A model generated the notes under the pieces. It made no database searches. It was not told where the DNA came from and saw nothing but the letters and a program-made list of their open reading frames with translations. From contig JACPPD010000010.1 of the NCBI GenBank assembly GCA_016191145.1, positions 186,001-250,000 on the forward strand: DNA of 64,000 nucleotides, written 5' to 3'. Within the stretch, counting starts at the first letter, position 1; every line of letters begins with the position of its first letter. The DNA is from Ignavibacteria bacterium (GTDB taxonomy: Bacteria > Bacteroidota > Ignavibacteria > Kapaibacteriales > Kapaibacteriaceae). Below are positions 39,434 to 46,712 of this stretch, piece after piece. The position numbers were made by a program, and so were the translations under genes.

Positions 39434-39534
39434 TAAAAAACCCCACCGAAGTGGGGTAAAGGCTTTCAGCCTGCGGTCTTTCTCGACCTTATTGTGGATC
39501 AGGACGAGAACTGATCTTTGATAATAGATTTCAA
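39434..39534 (-). ncRNA. tracrRNA of the type II-C CRISPR-Cas system
   Basis: On the minus strand the sequence from about 39525 contains an anti-repeat (39491-39525). Twenty-one consecutive bases (TTATCAAAGATCAGTTCTCG and the next T) match the plus-strand CRISPR repeat; then comes a short bulge, then GATCCACAAT against GATTCACAAC. It can therefore pair with almost the whole crRNA repeat, giving a lower stem, bulge and long upper stem. The tail forms three hairpins: GGTC/GACC, AGGCT/AGCCT, and ACCCCAC-TTCG-GTGGGGT (39440-39457) followed by six T residues (39435-39440), an intrinsic terminator with a UUCG tetraloop. The 5' end is predicted near 39534 from the promoter. It is transcribed away from cas9, and it fixes the crRNA strand as minus. 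Confidence 0.9.
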
Positions 39535-39589: not shown

Positions 39590-42500
39590 ATGTCTAAGGT
39601 ACTTGGATTGGATATTGGTTCAAATTCTGTGGGTTGGGCATTGGTTGATTTATCGGCAAGCAACATCGTGGGTATGGGGGTACGAATATTTCCCGAAAGT
39701 GTTGAAAGCCCTAATACAGAGAAGGAGCAGTCAAAAAATGTGACGCGAAGACTCAAACGACAGGTTAGAAGGCAGTATGAGCGCAGACGAATGCGCAAAG
39801 ACGCGGTTAGGAGGATGCTTTTCCATCTTAATCTACTCCCAACAGATCCAGAAACGTTTCGCGACACTCTCAAACAAGACCCATACGAGCTCCGCATGCG
39901 CGCTCTTAATGAGCGCATGGAATTGTACGAAATCGGTCGCATCGTCGATCACCTGGCGTCAAGGCGGGGGTTCCAAAGCAACCGTAAAACGTCATCCGAC
40001 GAAGAATCAAGCGGCGTTATTTATGAAGGTGCTAAGGACGGCTCAAAGCCAGGAATCAACGACATTGATGAGAGCCTCAACCCGGAACTCAGATTATACA
40101 GCTCATTTCTTAAAAATCGGAGTGAGTTAATTCAGAACCTTCCAGCATTAACCGATGGATACAGAACTGTTGGCGAGTACTTATATAGCCTTGACCCTCA
40201 TGTGAGGAGACGTCGGTGCAGATTTACACTGCGAGACCATTTCAAGATTGAACTCGACATCATACTTGGTAGACAATCAAAATACTATCCGGATTTACTA
40301 ACCGATAGCGTAATTAATCAAATACGCAATACTGTCTTCTTCCAGCGACCGCTCAAGTCAGCAAGAAAATTGGTCGGTCAATGTCGCTTTGAACCTGGGA
40401 AGAAGCGCTGTCACAAGAGTCATCCCGAATTTCAGCGTTTCAGATTTCTTCAGCAGATGAATTCGCTTCGAATTCGGTCGCAAGGAAGAATCGAAGAAGA
40501 CGATATGATGCTTACACCATCGGAACGCGTGGCGTTGGAATTATATGTTAAGCAAAAAGGGGCTCTTGATACAAGTAAGCCAAAAAACGTGAAAGATGCT
40601 CTTGGATGGAAGGACAAGACCATATTTCAGATTAATGCTGAACGCGTTGATGGATTATCAACCTACAGATCCTTAACACAAGCATTGGGTGCCGATACAA
40701 TTGCAGCAATGAATCGAAATGAGATACATGAACTGTGGAATACACTCAATTATGCAGCAGACAAAGACTGGATAATTGATGAATGGAAGCCAAAGGGTCT
40801 CACCCTTTCACGAGAACAGAGACAATCGTTGGCTAAAATTAAATTGGAGGATGGATATGGGTCATTGAGTCTGCGAGCAATCCGCAAGATCCTTCCATTT
40901 CTCGAAGAAGGTATGCAATACAGCGAAGCGGCAACAGCAGCAGGATACACATTCACCGACACTTTAATTTCAGTACCCATTACGGATATTGTTCCTAGGC
41001 TTGCTCCAGAAGATGCCAGAAATCCAATTGTTCAGCGCTCATTTGCAGAAACGCGAAAAGTGGTTAATGCAATAATTCGCAAATGGGGCAACCCCGATGT
41101 AATCCGCATTGAACTTGGACGCGAGCTGCGTGTGCCTGCATTCGAGAGAGCTCGGATGCAAAAGGAAATGTATAAAAACCGCGACCGCAACGAAGCTGAC
41201 AGGCAGCGGCTTCGTGAAGAATACAACATCGCTCACGGTTCAGTAACTGACGTACTTAAACTGCGTCTGTGGGAAGAGCAGCAATATGAATGCATTTATA
41301 CCGGTAAGCCAATTTCTAAAAATATGTTGTTTAACGGCTCTACGGACATTGATCATATTCTACCGTACAGCAGAACTCTTGATGATGGACGAGAGAATAA
41401 AGTCCTTTGTTTGCGCGAAGCAAATGCCAGCAAGGGTGATCGAATTCCAATGGAAGCATGCGACGAAGGAATCTTTAACCGTGAAAGTTTCAAGCAACGT
41501 GTTGACAATCTCATTTCCAAACACAACATTTCAGTTTCCAAGCAGCGCAAATTGTTGATGACGACAGACGTTTTCAATGAACGTTTTACGAACGACGATG
41601 AAACCGGATTTGTGGCACGCCAACTGAATGATACACGATTTGCAGCGCGCTTGGCTCTTAAATATTTACGCAACGTTAGTCCAAGTGTGCAGGCTGTTAC
41701 TGGTCAGATGACTGCCATGCTCCGCAGGAAATGGGGTCTTGATGGTGTCTTAACCGAACTTGCTGCAGCAGGAAGGGCTTGGGTTGCTCCATCAAATGAA
41801 CCAGGACGAAAGGATAGATCTGATCATCGGCATCATGCTATCGATGCGCTGACCGTTGCGCTCACTGACAGGTCTTTAGTAAAACGTATATCCGATATGA
41901 ACGTGCGAACAGGGTCTGCCAAAGATGCATTACTAGATGGCCGACTTGCACTCCCCGACGCGCCGTTGCCCGGTGTTAGGGCATTAGCCTTACGGGTTGT
42001 CGATAACATTATCGTAAGCCATAGAATCGGCCGGCCCGGGAGAGGACCTTTGCATGAAGAGACGTTCTACGGTATTTCGCGCGACAGGGATGGTAACCAA
42101 TTATACAATGAGAGAGATGTTCCGCTCTTTGTAGTTAGAAAACCTCTGTCATCGCTCACCTCAAACGAGATCACAGACATTGTGGACCCTGTGGTGAAGA
42201 AGGTTGTTTTCGACCGACTAGCATTTATGGGTGTTAACACCGAAACCGAAAAATTTACAGTCCCGAAAAATGCTTTTGCTGAACCATTATATCTGCCGCG
42301 AAGAGATGGTAGTAGGGGGCATGTAATTCGTCGGGTACGTGTTTATAAGGCATCCACGGGAATGCACCAACTACGTCGAGATGGACTGTTTGTCGAAACT
42401 GGCGGCAACGACTTTATTCGAATTATCCGAACTCCGGGTAGTAAGAAGGCTCTGTGGGAAGTACGAACGTTATTAGACACTGCAACTAATGCAAAGTCTA

Positions 42501-42736
42501 AAATTGAATCCGTTGGAGATGGACAGGAATTAAAATTGCGAATTGGTGAGCTAGTACGCTTCACGGATGGCGATATTTATAAAGTGCAAAAGGTTCGGAA
42601 AGATAATGGTCAGGTTGGTCTCTATCATCATGCGGATGCAACTGGAGATGTTAAACATTTACGGAATCCATATCCATCGGGCATTACAGGAGATAAGCTC
42701 AGAGTTGACCATATTGGGTTTCTCATTGAATCGTGA
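39590..42736 (+). CDS. cas9: CRISPR-associated endonuclease Cas9, type II-C
   Basis: 1048-residue RNA-guided DNA nuclease, in the compact II-C size range. RuvC-I: LGLDIGSNSVGWAL with catalytic Asp8. Arg-rich bridge helix about residues 45-75 (TRRLKRQVRRQYERRRMRK). RuvC-II: VIRIELGREL with Glu508. HNH: STDIDHILPYSRTLDDGREN with His589. RuvC-III: DHRHHAIDALTVAL (residues 745-758) with His/Asp. All nuclease residues are intact, so it should cut both strands. The C-terminal 250 residues are the PAM-interacting region. The start is set by GGGAGG ten bases upstream of the ATG. The stop overlaps cas1 by 4 bp (GTGA). tracrRNA is divergent upstream. Confidence 0.97.
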   Translation: MSKVLGLDIGSNSVGWALVDLSASNIVGMGVRIFPESVESPNTEKEQSKNVTRRLKRQVRRQYERRRMRKDAVRRMLFHLNLLPTDPETFRDTLKQDPYELRMRALNERMELYEIGRIVDHLASRRGFQSNRKTSSDEESSGVIYEGAKDGSKPGINDIDESLNPELRLYSSFLKNRSELIQNLPALTDGYRTVGEYLYSLDPHVRRRRCRFTLRDHFKIELDIILGRQSKYYPDLLTDSVINQIRNTVFFQRPLKSARKLVGQCRFEPGKKRCHKSHPEFQRFRFLQQMNSLRIRSQGRIEEDDMMLTPSERVALELYVKQKGALDTSKPKNVKDALGWKDKTIFQINAERVDGLSTYRSLTQALGADTIAAMNRNEIHELWNTLNYAADKDWIIDEWKPKGLTLSREQRQSLAKIKLEDGYGSLSLRAIRKILPFLEEGMQYSEAATAAGYTFTDTLISVPITDIVPRLAPEDARNPIVQRSFAETRKVVNAIIRKWGNPDVIRIELGRELRVPAFERARMQKEMYKNRDRNEADRQRLREEYNIAHGSVTDVLKLRLWEEQQYECIYTGKPISKNMLFNGSTDIDHILPYSRTLDDGRENKVLCLREANASKGDRIPMEACDEGIFNRESFKQRVDNLISKHNISVSKQRKLLMTTDVFNERFTNDDETGFVARQLNDTRFAARLALKYLRNVSPSVQAVTGQMTAMLRRKWGLDGVLTELAAAGRAWVAPSNEPGRKDRSDHRHHAIDALTVALTDRSLVKRISDMNVRTGSAKDALLDGRLALPDAPLPGVRALALRVVDNIIVSHRIGRPGRGPLHEETFYGISRDRDGNQLYNERDVPLFVVRKPLSSLTSNEITDIVDPVVKKVVFDRLAFMGVNTETEKFTVPKNAFAEPLYLPRRDGSRGHVIRRVRVYKASTGMHQLRRDGLFVETGGNDFIRIIRTPGSKKALWEVRTLLDTATNAKSKIESVGDGQELKLRIGELVRFTDGDIYKVQKVRKDNGQVGLYHHADATGDVKHLRNPYPSGITGDKLRVDHIGFLIES

Positions 42737-43629
42737 TTAAACGCTCTATAATTATCGCATCGCAATCTTTCATCTCCACCAAGGATGAGCAGTTGATTAT
42801 TGTGAACAGGGAGTCCGGTGAAGAGAAGGCAATTCCAATCGAAGACATTGGGTTCCTTGAACTCGCCTCGACGCAAGCCACCATCACCAGCGCTTCGTTA
42901 GCCAAACTTGCCCAATGCGGTATTCCAGCCATCATCTGCGACAGTTCGAACTATCCGATATCCATTTCAACGCCGATTTATGGAAATACACTTCACAACG
43001 AGCGTCTTCGGCTGCAAATTGAAGCTTCAAAACCCACATTGAAGCGTGTCTGGCAGGCATTGATTATTGCTAAAATTCGTAATCAGGCCGACGTTGTTGA
43101 ATACCTTGGCGGCACAGGCAAGACCTTGCGCCGGTATGCAGAGACTGTTTTATCAGACGATAGTTCGAATCGTGAATCATCTGCTGCCAGGCAGTATTGG
43201 CAACAGGTGCTGACGCAGTTTGACGTCATTCGCGATCCAGATGGAGCCTTCCCGAATAACTTTCTAAACTATGGGTATGCAGTACTCCGGTCTTCTGTTG
43301 CAAGAGGATTAGTTGGCGCTGGATTCCACCCTGCCATAGGGATAAAACATAAAAACAGGTACAACGCATTTGCTCTTGCAGACGATGTTATGGAGCCATA
43401 CCGTCCGTTTGTAGATTCCCACGTAATTCCATATTGTAAAAATATTGACAAAGGAGAGAGCCTGACGCCAACGCACAAGAAACATATTGTCAGCGTCCTT
43501 ACCATTGATTCCTATCACTCGGATGGGCGGCGCCCACTCATGAACTCCATCGAGCTAACATGTGCGCGAATCGTAAAGGCATTTCAAGGCGACATCAAGG
43601 TTCTCGATCTACCCCGCCCCTTCGCATAA
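42733..43629 (+). CDS. cas1: CRISPR adaptation integrase Cas1
   Basis: 298-residue type II Cas1 that integrates new spacers together with Cas2. The N-terminal beta domain starts IKRSIIIASQSFISTKDEQL. The catalytic region has GLVGAGFHPAIGIKHKNRYN and AFALADDVMEPYRPFVD, with the metal-binding His and Asp. The start is a GTG at 42733 overlapping the cas9 stop (GTGA), which indicates translational coupling. There is no csn2 or cas4, which is what defines subtype II-C together with the cas9-cas1-cas2 order. Confidence 0.96.
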   Translation: MIKRSIIIASQSFISTKDEQLIIVNRESGEEKAIPIEDIGFLELASTQATITSASLAKLAQCGIPAIICDSSNYPISISTPIYGNTLHNERLRLQIEASKPTLKRVWQALIIAKIRNQADVVEYLGGTGKTLRRYAETVLSDDSSNRESSAARQYWQQVLTQFDVIRDPDGAFPNNFLNYGYAVLRSSVARGLVGAGFHPAIGIKHKNRYNAFALADDVMEPYRPFVDSHVIPYCKNIDKGESLTPTHKKHIVSVLTIDSYHSDGRRPLMNSIELTCARIVKAFQGDIKVLDLPRPFA

Positions 43630-43949
43630 GTGAATACCGAGCCGTGTGGGTAATGGTGCTATTCGATCTTCCGGTTCGCACACCTGCGCAGAGGAAGGCA
43701 TATACCGTCTTTCACAAGAGACTCGTCAAAGGCGGCTTTTCCATGTGGCAGTTCAGTGTTTACGTTAGGCATTGTGCATCCGAGGAAAATGGCAGCGTAC
43801 ACATACGTCGCGTCGAAAACCTCTTACCCAAGGCCGGCAAGGTTTCAATCCTCACCATTACCGAAAAGCAAATGACTGCAATCCGAACGTACTGGGGTGT
43901 AACGCGTTATGAATCTCCCGAATCACCTGCACAACTTGAGTTATTTTAA
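43560..43949 (+). CDS. cas2: CRISPR adaptation protein Cas2
   Basis: Up to 130 residues. The Cas2 core is clear: VMVLFDLPVRTPAQRKAYTV, KGGFSMWQFSVYVRHC and VSILTITEKQMTAI. The stretch RISEYRAVW just before it is also conserved in II-C Cas2 proteins. The only ATG that includes it is at 43560, 70 bp inside cas1, a long overlap; the GTG at 43644 would give about 102 residues but lose RISEYR. The true start is therefore uncertain. The Cas1-Cas2 complex would insert spacers at the leader end of the array, which lies at the far (right) side. Confidence 0.93.
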   Translation: MCANRKGISRRHQGSRSTPPLRISEYRAVWVMVLFDLPVRTPAQRKAYTVFHKRLVKGGFSMWQFSVYVRHCASEENGSVHIRRVENLLPKAGKVSILTITEKQMTAIRTYWGVTRYESPESPAQLELF

Positions 43950-44052: not shown

Positions 44053-46102
44053 GTTATCAAAGATCAGTTCTCGTAGCCGATTCACAACATATCGAGTCAG
44101 GTAACAATACTGACTTGAGTTATCAAAGATCAGTTCTCGTAGCCGATTCACAACAAAAACGAAAGGACGCGGACAAAATCCGCAGTTATCAAAGATCAGT
44201 TCTCGTAGCCGATTCACAACTTCGTTCATCACACGCCCAAGCTCTTTTGGTTATCAAAGATCAGTTCTCGTAGCCGATTCACAACGCTGCCGATGCGCAT
44301 ACTCGCATGAGCTTGGTTATCAAAGATCAGTTCTCGTAGCCGATTCACAACGTAATAAACCCAACATGCCCACCACCTTTGGTTATCAAAGATCAGTTCT
44401 CGTAGCCGATTCACAACGCCTTCGTCATCGGAGATATAGTAATCTCGTTATCAAAGATCAGTTCTCGTAGCCGATTCACAACAAATCAACAGATGTCTCC
44501 ATCGGGGAGAAGTTATCAAAGATCAGTTCTCGTAGCCGATTCACAACCCACCACCGAACACGTGGGAAGTGATAGAGGTTATCAAAGATCAGTTCTCGTA
44601 GCCGATTCACAACACAGTCTTTGAATCCAGACCCGTTGCGGACGTTATCAAAGATCAGTTCTCGTAGCCGATTCACAACAGCCTTTACGGGTACGATCTG
44701 CAAGCTCCAGTTATCAAAGATCAGTTCTCGTAGCCGATTCACAACGCTCTTCGAGTGTCAACAGTAGGTCGGCGAGTTATCAAAGATCAGTTCTCGTAGC
44801 CGATTCACAACGCCAGCTGAATAGCCAGCCACCGATAGACAGTTATCAAAGATCAGTTCTCGTAGCCGATTCACAACGCAAGTTGAATAGCCAGCCACCG
44901 ATAGACAGTTATCAAAGATCAGTTCTCGTAGCCGATTCACAACGCTACCTCTGGCCTGAAATGTTACGAGTTAGTTATCAAAGATCAGTTCTCGTAGCCG
45001 ATTCACAACGCATCTTGCACTGTTTTCGCATTAAATATAGTTATCAAAGATCAGTTCTCGTAGCCGATTCACAACTATTTTGCGCTTGTTCACAGACTTT
45101 TGAAGTTATCAAAGATCAGTTCTCGTAGCCGATTCACAACTTTTTTTTAGTGGGGCGAACAACGGCAGGGGTTATCAAAGATCAGTTCTCGTAGCCGATT
45201 CACAACTACCGGGAAGGGTTCAAAAATTTACCGATGGTTATCAAAGATCAGTTCTCGTAGCCGATTCACAACATGAAAACACTCGATTACAAACTCGTGG
45301 AGGTTATCAAAGATCAGTTCTCGTAGCCGATTCACAACCAACGTGTTACTTCTCTGCCACGAAGTTGGTTATCAAAGATCAGTTCTCGTAGCCGATTCAC
45401 AACACTTTTTTTGAATCGAGTCCCGTAGCTGCTGTTATCAAAGATCAGTTCTCGTAGCCGATTCACAACTAGGATGTTTTACAACATTTCCCTCGCGAGT
45501 TATCAAAGATCAGTTCTCGTAGCCGATTCACAACCGGAATGCCCATAGAGTGGACGGCAACGAGTTATCAAAGATCAGTTCTCGTAGCCGATTCACAACA
45601 CAACACCGTTAATAGTAACGGAATTTAATAGCCGATTCACAACATAACGTTTCAAGCAGAAAATAAATCCGGGTTATCAAAGATCAGTTCTCGTAGCCGA
45701 TTCACAACGAGGTGTCTGGGATGTGCAGCAGGCGATCTGTTATCAAAGATCAGTTCTCGTAGCCGATTCACAACTGTTCGGTCTCTGCCGTCGTGACAAG
45801 GGCGGTTATCAAAGATCAGTTCTCGTAGCCGATTCACAACAAAAATGGGCTTGTCAACAAAAGAACTTGGGTTATCAAAGATCAGTTCTCGTAGCCGATT
45901 CACAACAAGCAAGTATTGCGCCGTCTCGGCAGATAGTTATCAAAGATCAGTTCTCGTAGCCGATTCACAACGTAGTTGCAAACCTGCCACCTGCGAAATG
46001 TGTTATCAAAGATCAGTTCTCGTAGCCGATTCACAACTGGGCACACAGCCTGAAGCCTTTCGCGCGGTTATCAAAGATCAGTTCTCGTAGCCGATTCACA
46101 AC
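44053..46102 (-). CRISPR. type II-C CRISPR array: 31 full repeats, 1 truncated repeat, 31 spacers
   Basis: 36-bp repeats, identical as far as I can see, beginning on the plus strand GTTATCAAAGATCAGTTCTC and ending TAGCCGATTCACAAC. Spacers are 29 or 30 bp (period 65-66). The 25th repeat is truncated to its last 15 bp (45629-45643). From the tracrRNA, crRNAs are read from the minus strand as spacer followed by GTTGTGAATCGG..., so the leader-proximal end is near 46102 and the oldest spacers are near cas2. Spacers at 44812-44841 and 44878-44907 differ at two bases; those at 44614-44643 and 45404-45433 are related in codon phase. No other interrupted repeat was noticed. Confidence 0.98.
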
Positions 46103-46414: not shown

Positions 46415-46712
46415 ATGGATGGATTTAATAGTAAGACGGCAATTTTAATTGATGAAAATCGGAATAGACATTGCATGGCTCGCGACTAAGAAAATTGTTG
46501 ATGGCATCATCTTGGTTACGTCGGATAGGGACTTTATTGCCCGCGTGAAACTGGCCCGGACTGAAGGCCTTTCAGTTTATTTGTGTCCACTGGGAGTAAG
46601 CGTCAAAAGTGAACTCTATGAGCATGCAGATCTCATTATGAAATTGACTGCTGCCGATCTGGTTGGTGAGGAGAAATCCCGATTGGGTGTGCCAGTTGCT
46701 ATCAATGTTTAG
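46415..46712 (+). pseudogene. remnant of an NYN-domain (LabA/DUF88-like) protein
   Basis: The frame from 46449 encodes the C-terminal half of an NYN-type PIN-like nuclease domain: MKIGIDIAWLATKKIVDGII, LVTSDRDFIARVKLARTEGL, CPLGVSVKSELYEHAD. In full-length proteins this is preceded by an N-terminal half beginning like AILIDGENL. A matching start, MDGFNSKTAILIDENRN, is visible at 46415 in a different frame and runs into the second piece, so about 70 residues with the first catalytic Asp region are deleted and the frame is shifted. The remaining part keeps the SDRDF acidic site but is unlikely to be active. It sits just outside the CRISPR leader. Confidence 0.65.

What the first reader, a model, noticed from the sequence alone, without database searches (positions are those of the whole stretch)
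44812..44907. Adjacent spacers target two alleles of one gene, differing only by synonymous seed changes
Spacers 44812-44841 and 44878-44907 are 28/30 identical. Read on the crRNA strand in one frame both encode VYRWLAIQL; the two differences are CAG/CAA and CTG/CTT, both synonymous. Both changes lie 3 and 6 bases from the crRNA 3' (repeat-proximal) end, the PAM-proximal seed of Cas9. This looks like re-vaccination against a phage that escaped by, or naturally carries, silent seed changes.
Basis: partly seen in the sequence, partly recalled or inferred. Interest (0 to 1): 0.65.

Follow-up and report, generated by a model that had tools for sequence, protein, structure and literature searches.

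The report
CRISPR array resampling one phage site
A bacterium's CRISPR memory holds two neighbouring entries taken from the same spot in two slightly different versions of one unidentified, probably viral, target; related bacteria show the same habit, and it need not mean that the virus mutated to escape.

Summary
Spacers 12 (44812-44841) and 13 (44878-44907) of a Cas9-Cas1-Cas2 array are 28/30 identical in exact register, differing 3 and 6 nt from the crRNA 3' end (strand inferred from a tracrRNA). Two independent acquisitions at one protospacer explain this best. A sister species' 158-slot array holds six same-register families at non-adjacent slots. Two of its identical pairs differ in length (29 vs 30 nt), so they are separate events, and its 7 length-differing pairs (4 families) all align at the end matching the crRNA 3' (PAM) side. 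Duplication plus mutation is unlikely: the window's 31 full repeats carry no substitution. Synonymy is plausible but unproven: four frames are open, and two random changes give a fully synonymous frame in 29% of trials. No protospacer was found in the pattern and blastn searches made, so gene and PAM are unknown. Escape is not supported as a rule: over 8 differing pairs, 8 of 27 differences fall in the 10 seed-side bases, about the chance share, and identical re-acquisitions exist. Ordinary type II-C-like behaviour, with a useful demonstration of PAM-anchored resampling.

The parts
44812..44841 (-). spacer 12; crRNA sense TGTCTATCGGTGGCTGGCTATTCAGCTGGC
44878..44907 (-). spacer 13; crRNA sense TGTCTATCGGTGGCTGGCTATTCAACTTGC; differs from spacer 12 at 3 and 6 nt from the crRNA 3' end
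44053..46102 (-). CRISPR array, 31 identical 36-nt repeats, 30 slots (crRNA strand minus, inferred)
44614..44643 (-). spacer 9, probably related to spacer 21 (21/30, offset 0; 7 of 9 differences in one codon phase)
   Evidence: its score (12) is also the best seen in 60 shuffled sets
45404..45433 (-). spacer 21, partner of spacer 9
44944..44973 (-). spacer 14, probably targets a phage C5 DNA methyltransferase (26/30 to Bacteroides phage BS-TP4; 28/30 to 12 IMG/VR contigs)
45629..45643 (-). truncated repeat (15 of 36 nt) between two 29-nt spacers in slot 24
39435..39530 (-). predicted tracrRNA: anti-repeat about 39491-39525, terminator hairpin about 39441-39456, then a T run; ends approximate, counted by eye
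39590..42736 (+). cas9, 1048 aa (HNH_4, RuvC_III, Cas9_a; TIGR01865)
42733..43629 (+). cas1, 298 aa (TIGR03639 cas1_NMENI)
43560..43949 (+). cas2 (ORF 129 aa; the true start may lie downstream)

Best explanation
This is a type II-C-like CRISPR-Cas locus in which Cas1-Cas2 (with Cas9 choosing PAM-bearing targets, recalled from type II systems) sampled one and the same PAM-anchored protospacer twice, from two coexisting or successive variants of one target that differ at two bases. Shown: the two spacers, their register, a tracrRNA-like element that sets the crRNA strand, and the same habit in the orthologous array of a sister species. Inferred: that the target is a phage gene, that the changes are synonymous (VYRWLAIQL frame), and that spacer 13 came first and 12 later, because II-C arrays are reported to grow at the crRNA-3' end, here the cas2 side. 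The simplest driver is repeated predation by a small pool of related phages with natural sequence diversity; each guide would match its own allele perfectly in the seed, where a guide for the other allele has two mismatches. Escape followed by re-immunisation is a special case of this that is possible but not required.
For: Exact 28/30 register match. Sister genome G004 (same genus, Cas1 52% identical, same gene order, similar repeat) has six same-register families at non-adjacent slots: 14/64/67, 24/52/150, 124/135/153, 16/112, 34/98, 46/86. Identical pairs 24/52 and 124/135 differ in length, 29 vs 30 nt, so they are separate acquisitions; 7 of 7 length-differing pairs of G004 (4 families), and 1 of 1 in G047, align only when anchored at the + left end, which corresponds to the crRNA 3' (PAM) side. 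Further same-register pairs: G027 two, G030 one identical, G047 one; 5 of the 13 arrays compared (549 spacers) hold such pairs, the window included. No substitution in the 31 full window repeats (1116 nt) makes two substitutions in a duplicated pair unlikely: P about 0.012, or 0.0003 with 158 intact G004 repeats counted. A probable second same-site pair in the window, 9/21. Spacer 14 fits a phage C5 methyltransferase. Crude frame weighting favours VYRWLAIQL by 0.74-0.95 if third positions carry 60-80% of changes.
Against: No protospacer for 12 or 13 in what was searched, so two real alleles were never seen. Spacers 12 and 13 are adjacent, as a tandem duplication would give, and G004 slots 112/113 look like a tandem unit duplication with a deletion. 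Some repeats do mutate: the terminal repeat remnant of G004, left out of the count, and single repeats in G091, G027, G113 and G116. The pooled codon-phase and synonymy tests over 8 pairs are not significant (P 0.099 and 0.086). No spacer target is shared between the window and G004 or between any two of the 13 arrays.
Confidence: 0.8

Rival explanations
1. Phage escape and re-vaccination (a special case of two acquisitions): a phage carrying the spacer-13 sequence escaped by two silent seed changes and the host then acquired spacer 12 from the escaper.
For: Both changes lie within 6 nt of the crRNA 3' end; for random placement P=0.034, and 0.036 among the 8 synonymous-capable third positions. 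The VYRWLAIQL frame makes both silent.
Against: Over 8 differing same-site pairs, 8 of 27 differences lie in the 10 seed-side bases (P=0.84), and 3 of 8 pairs have none there. Six same-register pairs are identical over their shared length, so re-acquisition does not need escape.
Confidence: 0.2
2. Duplication of one repeat-spacer unit, followed by two point mutations in one copy.
For: The two units are adjacent; an apparent tandem duplication with an 11-nt deletion is visible in G004 slots 112/113.
Against: No substitution in the 31 full repeats of this array; in G004 158 of the 159 repeats found match the consensus exactly and the odd one is explained by the deletion, while its degenerate terminal remnant lies outside that count. 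Non-adjacent same-site spacers of different length show that resampling occurs.
Confidence: 0.1
3. The target frame is another one, so the changes are amino-acid replacements (for example CLSVAGYS-AG versus CLSVAGYS-TC).
For: Frame -0 resembles SVAGYS stretches of proteins with DUF7483 (L182) and DUF3987 (L192) domains; frame -1 resembles DUF3268 (L004) and Mu-type portal (L026) proteins. None is close at DNA level (7 or more mismatches).
Against: Between near-identical alleles third-position changes are expected to dominate; a weighting on that assumption favours frame -1.
Confidence: 0.2
4. Assembly chimera of strains that carry one or the other spacer.
For: The source is a 19-contig assembly; reads are not available.
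Against: A clean 66-nt unit step with intact repeats; same-site pairs also occur in G004, a single-contig genome.
Confidence: 0.03

Closest known systems
Octopus Spring Synechococcus CRISPR spacers and virome variants (Heidelberg et al. 2009, PMC2612747; passages seen)
   Same: Natural viral alleles at a spacer target differ by silent or conservative changes.
   Different: There the variants were seen in the virome; here two variants are stored side by side in one array and no virome is at hand.
Independent acquisition of one protospacer in Legionella type I-C (PMC5071653; one passage seen)
   Same: Two separate acquisitions at the same protospacer.
   Different: Type I-C, plasmid target, experimental; the passage seen describes no sequence difference between the two.
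Type II-C CRISPR-Cas arrays (PMC12080349 and PMC12638026; passages seen)
   Same: cas9-cas1-cas2 gene set; reported growth at the crRNA-3' end fits mutated repeats at the cas-distal end in G004, G091, G027 and G113.
   Different: Nothing that sets it apart was found.

Membership tests
Type II-C CRISPR-Cas | Cas9 with HNH and RuvC | tested here: met
Type II-C CRISPR-Cas | cas1 and cas2 as the only adaptation genes, no csn2 or cas4 between cas9 and the array | tested here: met
   cas9, cas1 and cas2 are the only non-nested ORFs of 90 aa or more between 39590 and the array; only these three were scanned against families, and the rest of the genome was not searched for csn2 or cas4
Type II-C CRISPR-Cas | tracrRNA with anti-repeat and terminator | tested here: met
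   (sequence prediction)
Type II-C CRISPR-Cas | Cas9/Cas1 phylogenetic placement in the II-C clade | not tested
   only family models were run; Cas1 matches the type II model TIGR03639
Type II-C CRISPR-Cas | spacer addition at the crRNA 3' end of the array | tested here: inconclusive
   mutated repeats at the cas-distal end in G004, G091, G027 and G113 (sides worked out by hand) agree; the window array has none at its ends
Phage escape by seed mutation and re-immunisation | escape allele and ancestral allele at one protospacer with a shared PAM | tested here: inconclusive
   no protospacer found
Phage escape by seed mutation and re-immunisation | excess of differences in the seed among same-site spacers | tested here: not met
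   8 of 27, P=0.84

The most novel reading that the evidence does not exclude
Imperfect targeting by an older guide feeds acquisition back to the very same PAM-anchored site, so that this lineage updates its memory allele by allele (a site-directed primed adaptation), rather than resampling a small phage pool at random.
Probability: 0.1. Interest if true: 0.6.

Novelty: new member of a known kind. Interest (0 to 1): 0.3.

Why it matters
Same-site spacers from different alleles are a fossil record of which target variants a host met and in what order. Identical spacers of different length give a sequence-only argument for independent acquisition and show the PAM side without any protospacer. 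They also warn against reading every seed difference as escape.

Tried and rejected
Exact search for both alleles in IMG/VR: none. Pattern for YRWLAIQL: four contigs; L003/L006 and L005 have short frames (73 and 13 codons), L004 is a DUF3268 protein with YSWLAIQL, 11-13 mismatches. The same idea in GTDB contigs: six hits with 8-12 mismatches, none convincing. The same pattern in 99 genomes, the own one included: only the array itself. VYRWLA.QL[GA]: one Mu-type portal, 7-9 mismatches. 17-nt core: four contigs, 7-10 mismatches. CLSVAGYS frame: seven contigs, 10-13 mismatches. Phage blastn of spacer 12: three hits, E 0.6 to 8; Xylophilus phage Lumi has 8-9 mismatches over the 30 nt and, by my arithmetic on the annotated CDS, is not in the VYRWLAIQL frame. 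Plasmid hits: the 20 of 46 listed for spacer 12, and both for the whole array, had E of 5 or more. DUF3268 in 99 genomes: none, but its control also rang in none, so uninformative. Patterns for spacers 9/21 and for the G004 KHELI site: none in IMG/VR. G004 array against phages: only E of 2 or more. Window and G004 spacers (spacer 14, the double slot and a short G004 slot left out) against the loci then held: one hit with 6 mismatches, taken as chance. Spacer 24a in G080 (E 0.007 per genome, 123 genomes): taken as chance, not followed. PAM from opposite-strand overlapping pairs: looked at by eye, no consistent motif, not computed. Literature queries for near-identical or re-acquired spacers: no paper; two searches listed papers (1 and 5) that look beside the point by title; one search listed two, not opened; one search gave the Legionella note. 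These do not show absence from print.

Full report
Observation. The array at 44053-46102 has 31 identical 36-nt repeats and 30 slots. Slots 12 and 13 are 28/30 identical at offset 0; 0 of 60 shuffled spacer sets reached that score (best 12 against 26). The differences are at + positions 3 and 6.

Strand and seed. Upstream of cas9 the minus strand reads anti-repeat, small stems, a GC hairpin and a T run (about 39530-39435), a tracrRNA-like element that pairs with the minus-strand repeat (duplex -44.1 kcal/mol). The opposite strands pair as well (-46.2), as complements must, but only the minus strand has the terminator after the anti-repeat. So the crRNA is taken as minus and the differences lie 3 and 6 nt from its 3' end, next to where a Cas9 PAM would be. 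Cas9, Cas1 and Cas2 are identified by Pfam and NCBIfam models. Formal subtype phylogeny was not done.

Same-site resampling in relatives. Of 122 genomes of the order, 16 (the window's own included) have a Cas1 match at E <= 1e-40. I took flanking DNA from the other 15. G006 had no repeated 24-mer in the stretch held, which ends with its contig; G019 and G100 gave no array of 3 or more repeats. The spacers of the 13 arrays left, several of them cut by contig ends, were compared: 549 spacers, the window's double slot 24 and one short G004 slot left out. Strong same-register pairs occur in the window (12/13, 9/21), G004 (families 14/64/67, 24/52/150, 124/135/153, 16/112, 34/98, 46/86), G027 (41/53, 14/30), G030 (18/24) and G047 (49/53); none at the thresholds used in the other 8 arrays. 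Weaker same-strand pairs at other offsets (G004 38/158 and 33/70, G030 8/33) I treat as chance, and G004 86/98 and 34/86 as low-complexity. G004 34/98 and 46/86 have internally repetitive sequence and are weaker evidence. Opposite-strand overlaps also occur: two in G004, two in G113, one in G091. No target is shared between arrays: the best window-G004 spacer match is 17 of 26, and no two arrays share a spacer at 22 or more identities.

Independent events. In G004, 24/52 and 124/135 are identical over 29 nt but 29 versus 30 nt long; copying inside the array would keep the length. All 7 length-differing pairs of G004 (from 4 families, so not 7 independent cases), and the one in G047, match only when aligned at the + left end. 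For G004 that is the crRNA 3' end if its strand is as in the window (inferred from repeat similarity and gene order, not tested by tracrRNA). So the fixed end is the PAM-side end.

Duplication rival. With zero substitutions in the 31 full window repeats, the 95% upper bound on divergence gives P=0.012 for two or more substitutions in 60 nt of spacer, and 0.0003 when 158 G004 repeats are added. This assumes that repeats are not homogenised or selected, and it leaves out the degenerate terminal repeat of G004, seen by eye in the flank printed. Other relatives also show mutated repeats: at the cas-distal end in G091, G027 and G113, and repeat 6 of 7 in the contig-cut G116 array. An apparent tandem duplication with a deletion exists in G004 at slots 112/113, so the rival is kept at low confidence.

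Coding reading. Four frames are open in both spacers; only -1 (VYRWLAIQL) is synonymous. Two random substitutions in this spacer give a fully synonymous open frame in 29% of trials; over 8 pairs the pooled P is 0.086 for synonymy and 0.099 for codon phase, neither significant. Pair 9/21 is suggestive: 7 of 9 differences in one phase, P=0.006; amino-acid test P=0.03. In the + frame with 3 amino-acid changes it reads TVFESRPVAD / TFFESSPVAA; another frame has 2. Its plain similarity score (12) was equalled in 1 of 60 shuffled sets. A crude weighting that supposes third positions carry 60-80% of changes puts 0.74-0.95 on VYRWLAIQL; the weights are my assumption, and equal weights give 0.25.

Protospacers. 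Five of the 8 IMG/VR scans were aimed at 12/13 (the others, at other spacers). These, the one GTDB contig scan, phage and plasmid blastn and whole-genome searches of 123, 395 and 391 overlapping genomes gave no protospacer for 12/13. The queries held spacer 13, not 12. No self-target appeared in the own genome. Peptide look-alikes exist in DUF3268 and Portal_Mu (frame -1) and in DUF7483 and DUF3987 (frame -0) proteins, which is why I do not name the gene. The selection by motif inflates that similarity, and the flanks are conserved codons, so no PAM is read from it.

Escape or diversity. In 8 differing pairs (one per family; the G047 pair left out because of an indel and an untested strand), 8 of 27 differences are within 10 nt of the crRNA 3' end (expected one third, P=0.84), and three pairs have none there (without 12/13 it is 6 of 25). 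Six same-register pairs are identical over their shared length. For 12/13 alone the clustering in the last 6 nt has P=0.034, suggestive but from one pair picked because it was striking.

Order. Passages of two papers say that II-C arrays gain spacers at the last repeat in crRNA orientation, the 3' end (PMC12080349; PMC12638026); the second adds that II-C may hold subgroups with different acquisition ends. Mutated repeats at the cas-distal end in G004, G091, G027 and G113 agree. So slot 1 would be newest and spacer 12 newer than 13; inferred.

Literature. PMC2612747 (passages, among them most of the abstract) reports silent or conservative viral variation at spacer targets. PMC5071653 (one passage) notes two independent acquisitions of one protospacer. 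Others were seen in listings only.

Noticed in passing
45600-45672: One slot holds two 29-nt spacers around a 15-nt remnant of the repeat, so one repeat lost about 21 nt.
   Followed up: partly
L181 (G004 array), slots 136/149 and 50/103; also G113 21/31 and 1/27, G091 21/46: Pairs of spacers from opposite strands of the same site overlapping by 20-28 nt, a second kind of site resampling.
   Followed up: partly
L181:7901: Apparent tandem unit duplication with an 11-nt deletion across the repeat-spacer junction (slots 112/113).
   Followed up: no
46452-46712: Short ORF beside the array matching only the C-terminal part of the NYN domain (Pfam PF01936, positions 80-139 of 145), possibly a gene remnant.
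   Followed up: partly
44944-44973: Spacer 14 matches a conserved motif of phage C5 DNA methyltransferases shared by many IMG/VR contigs.
   Followed up: yes
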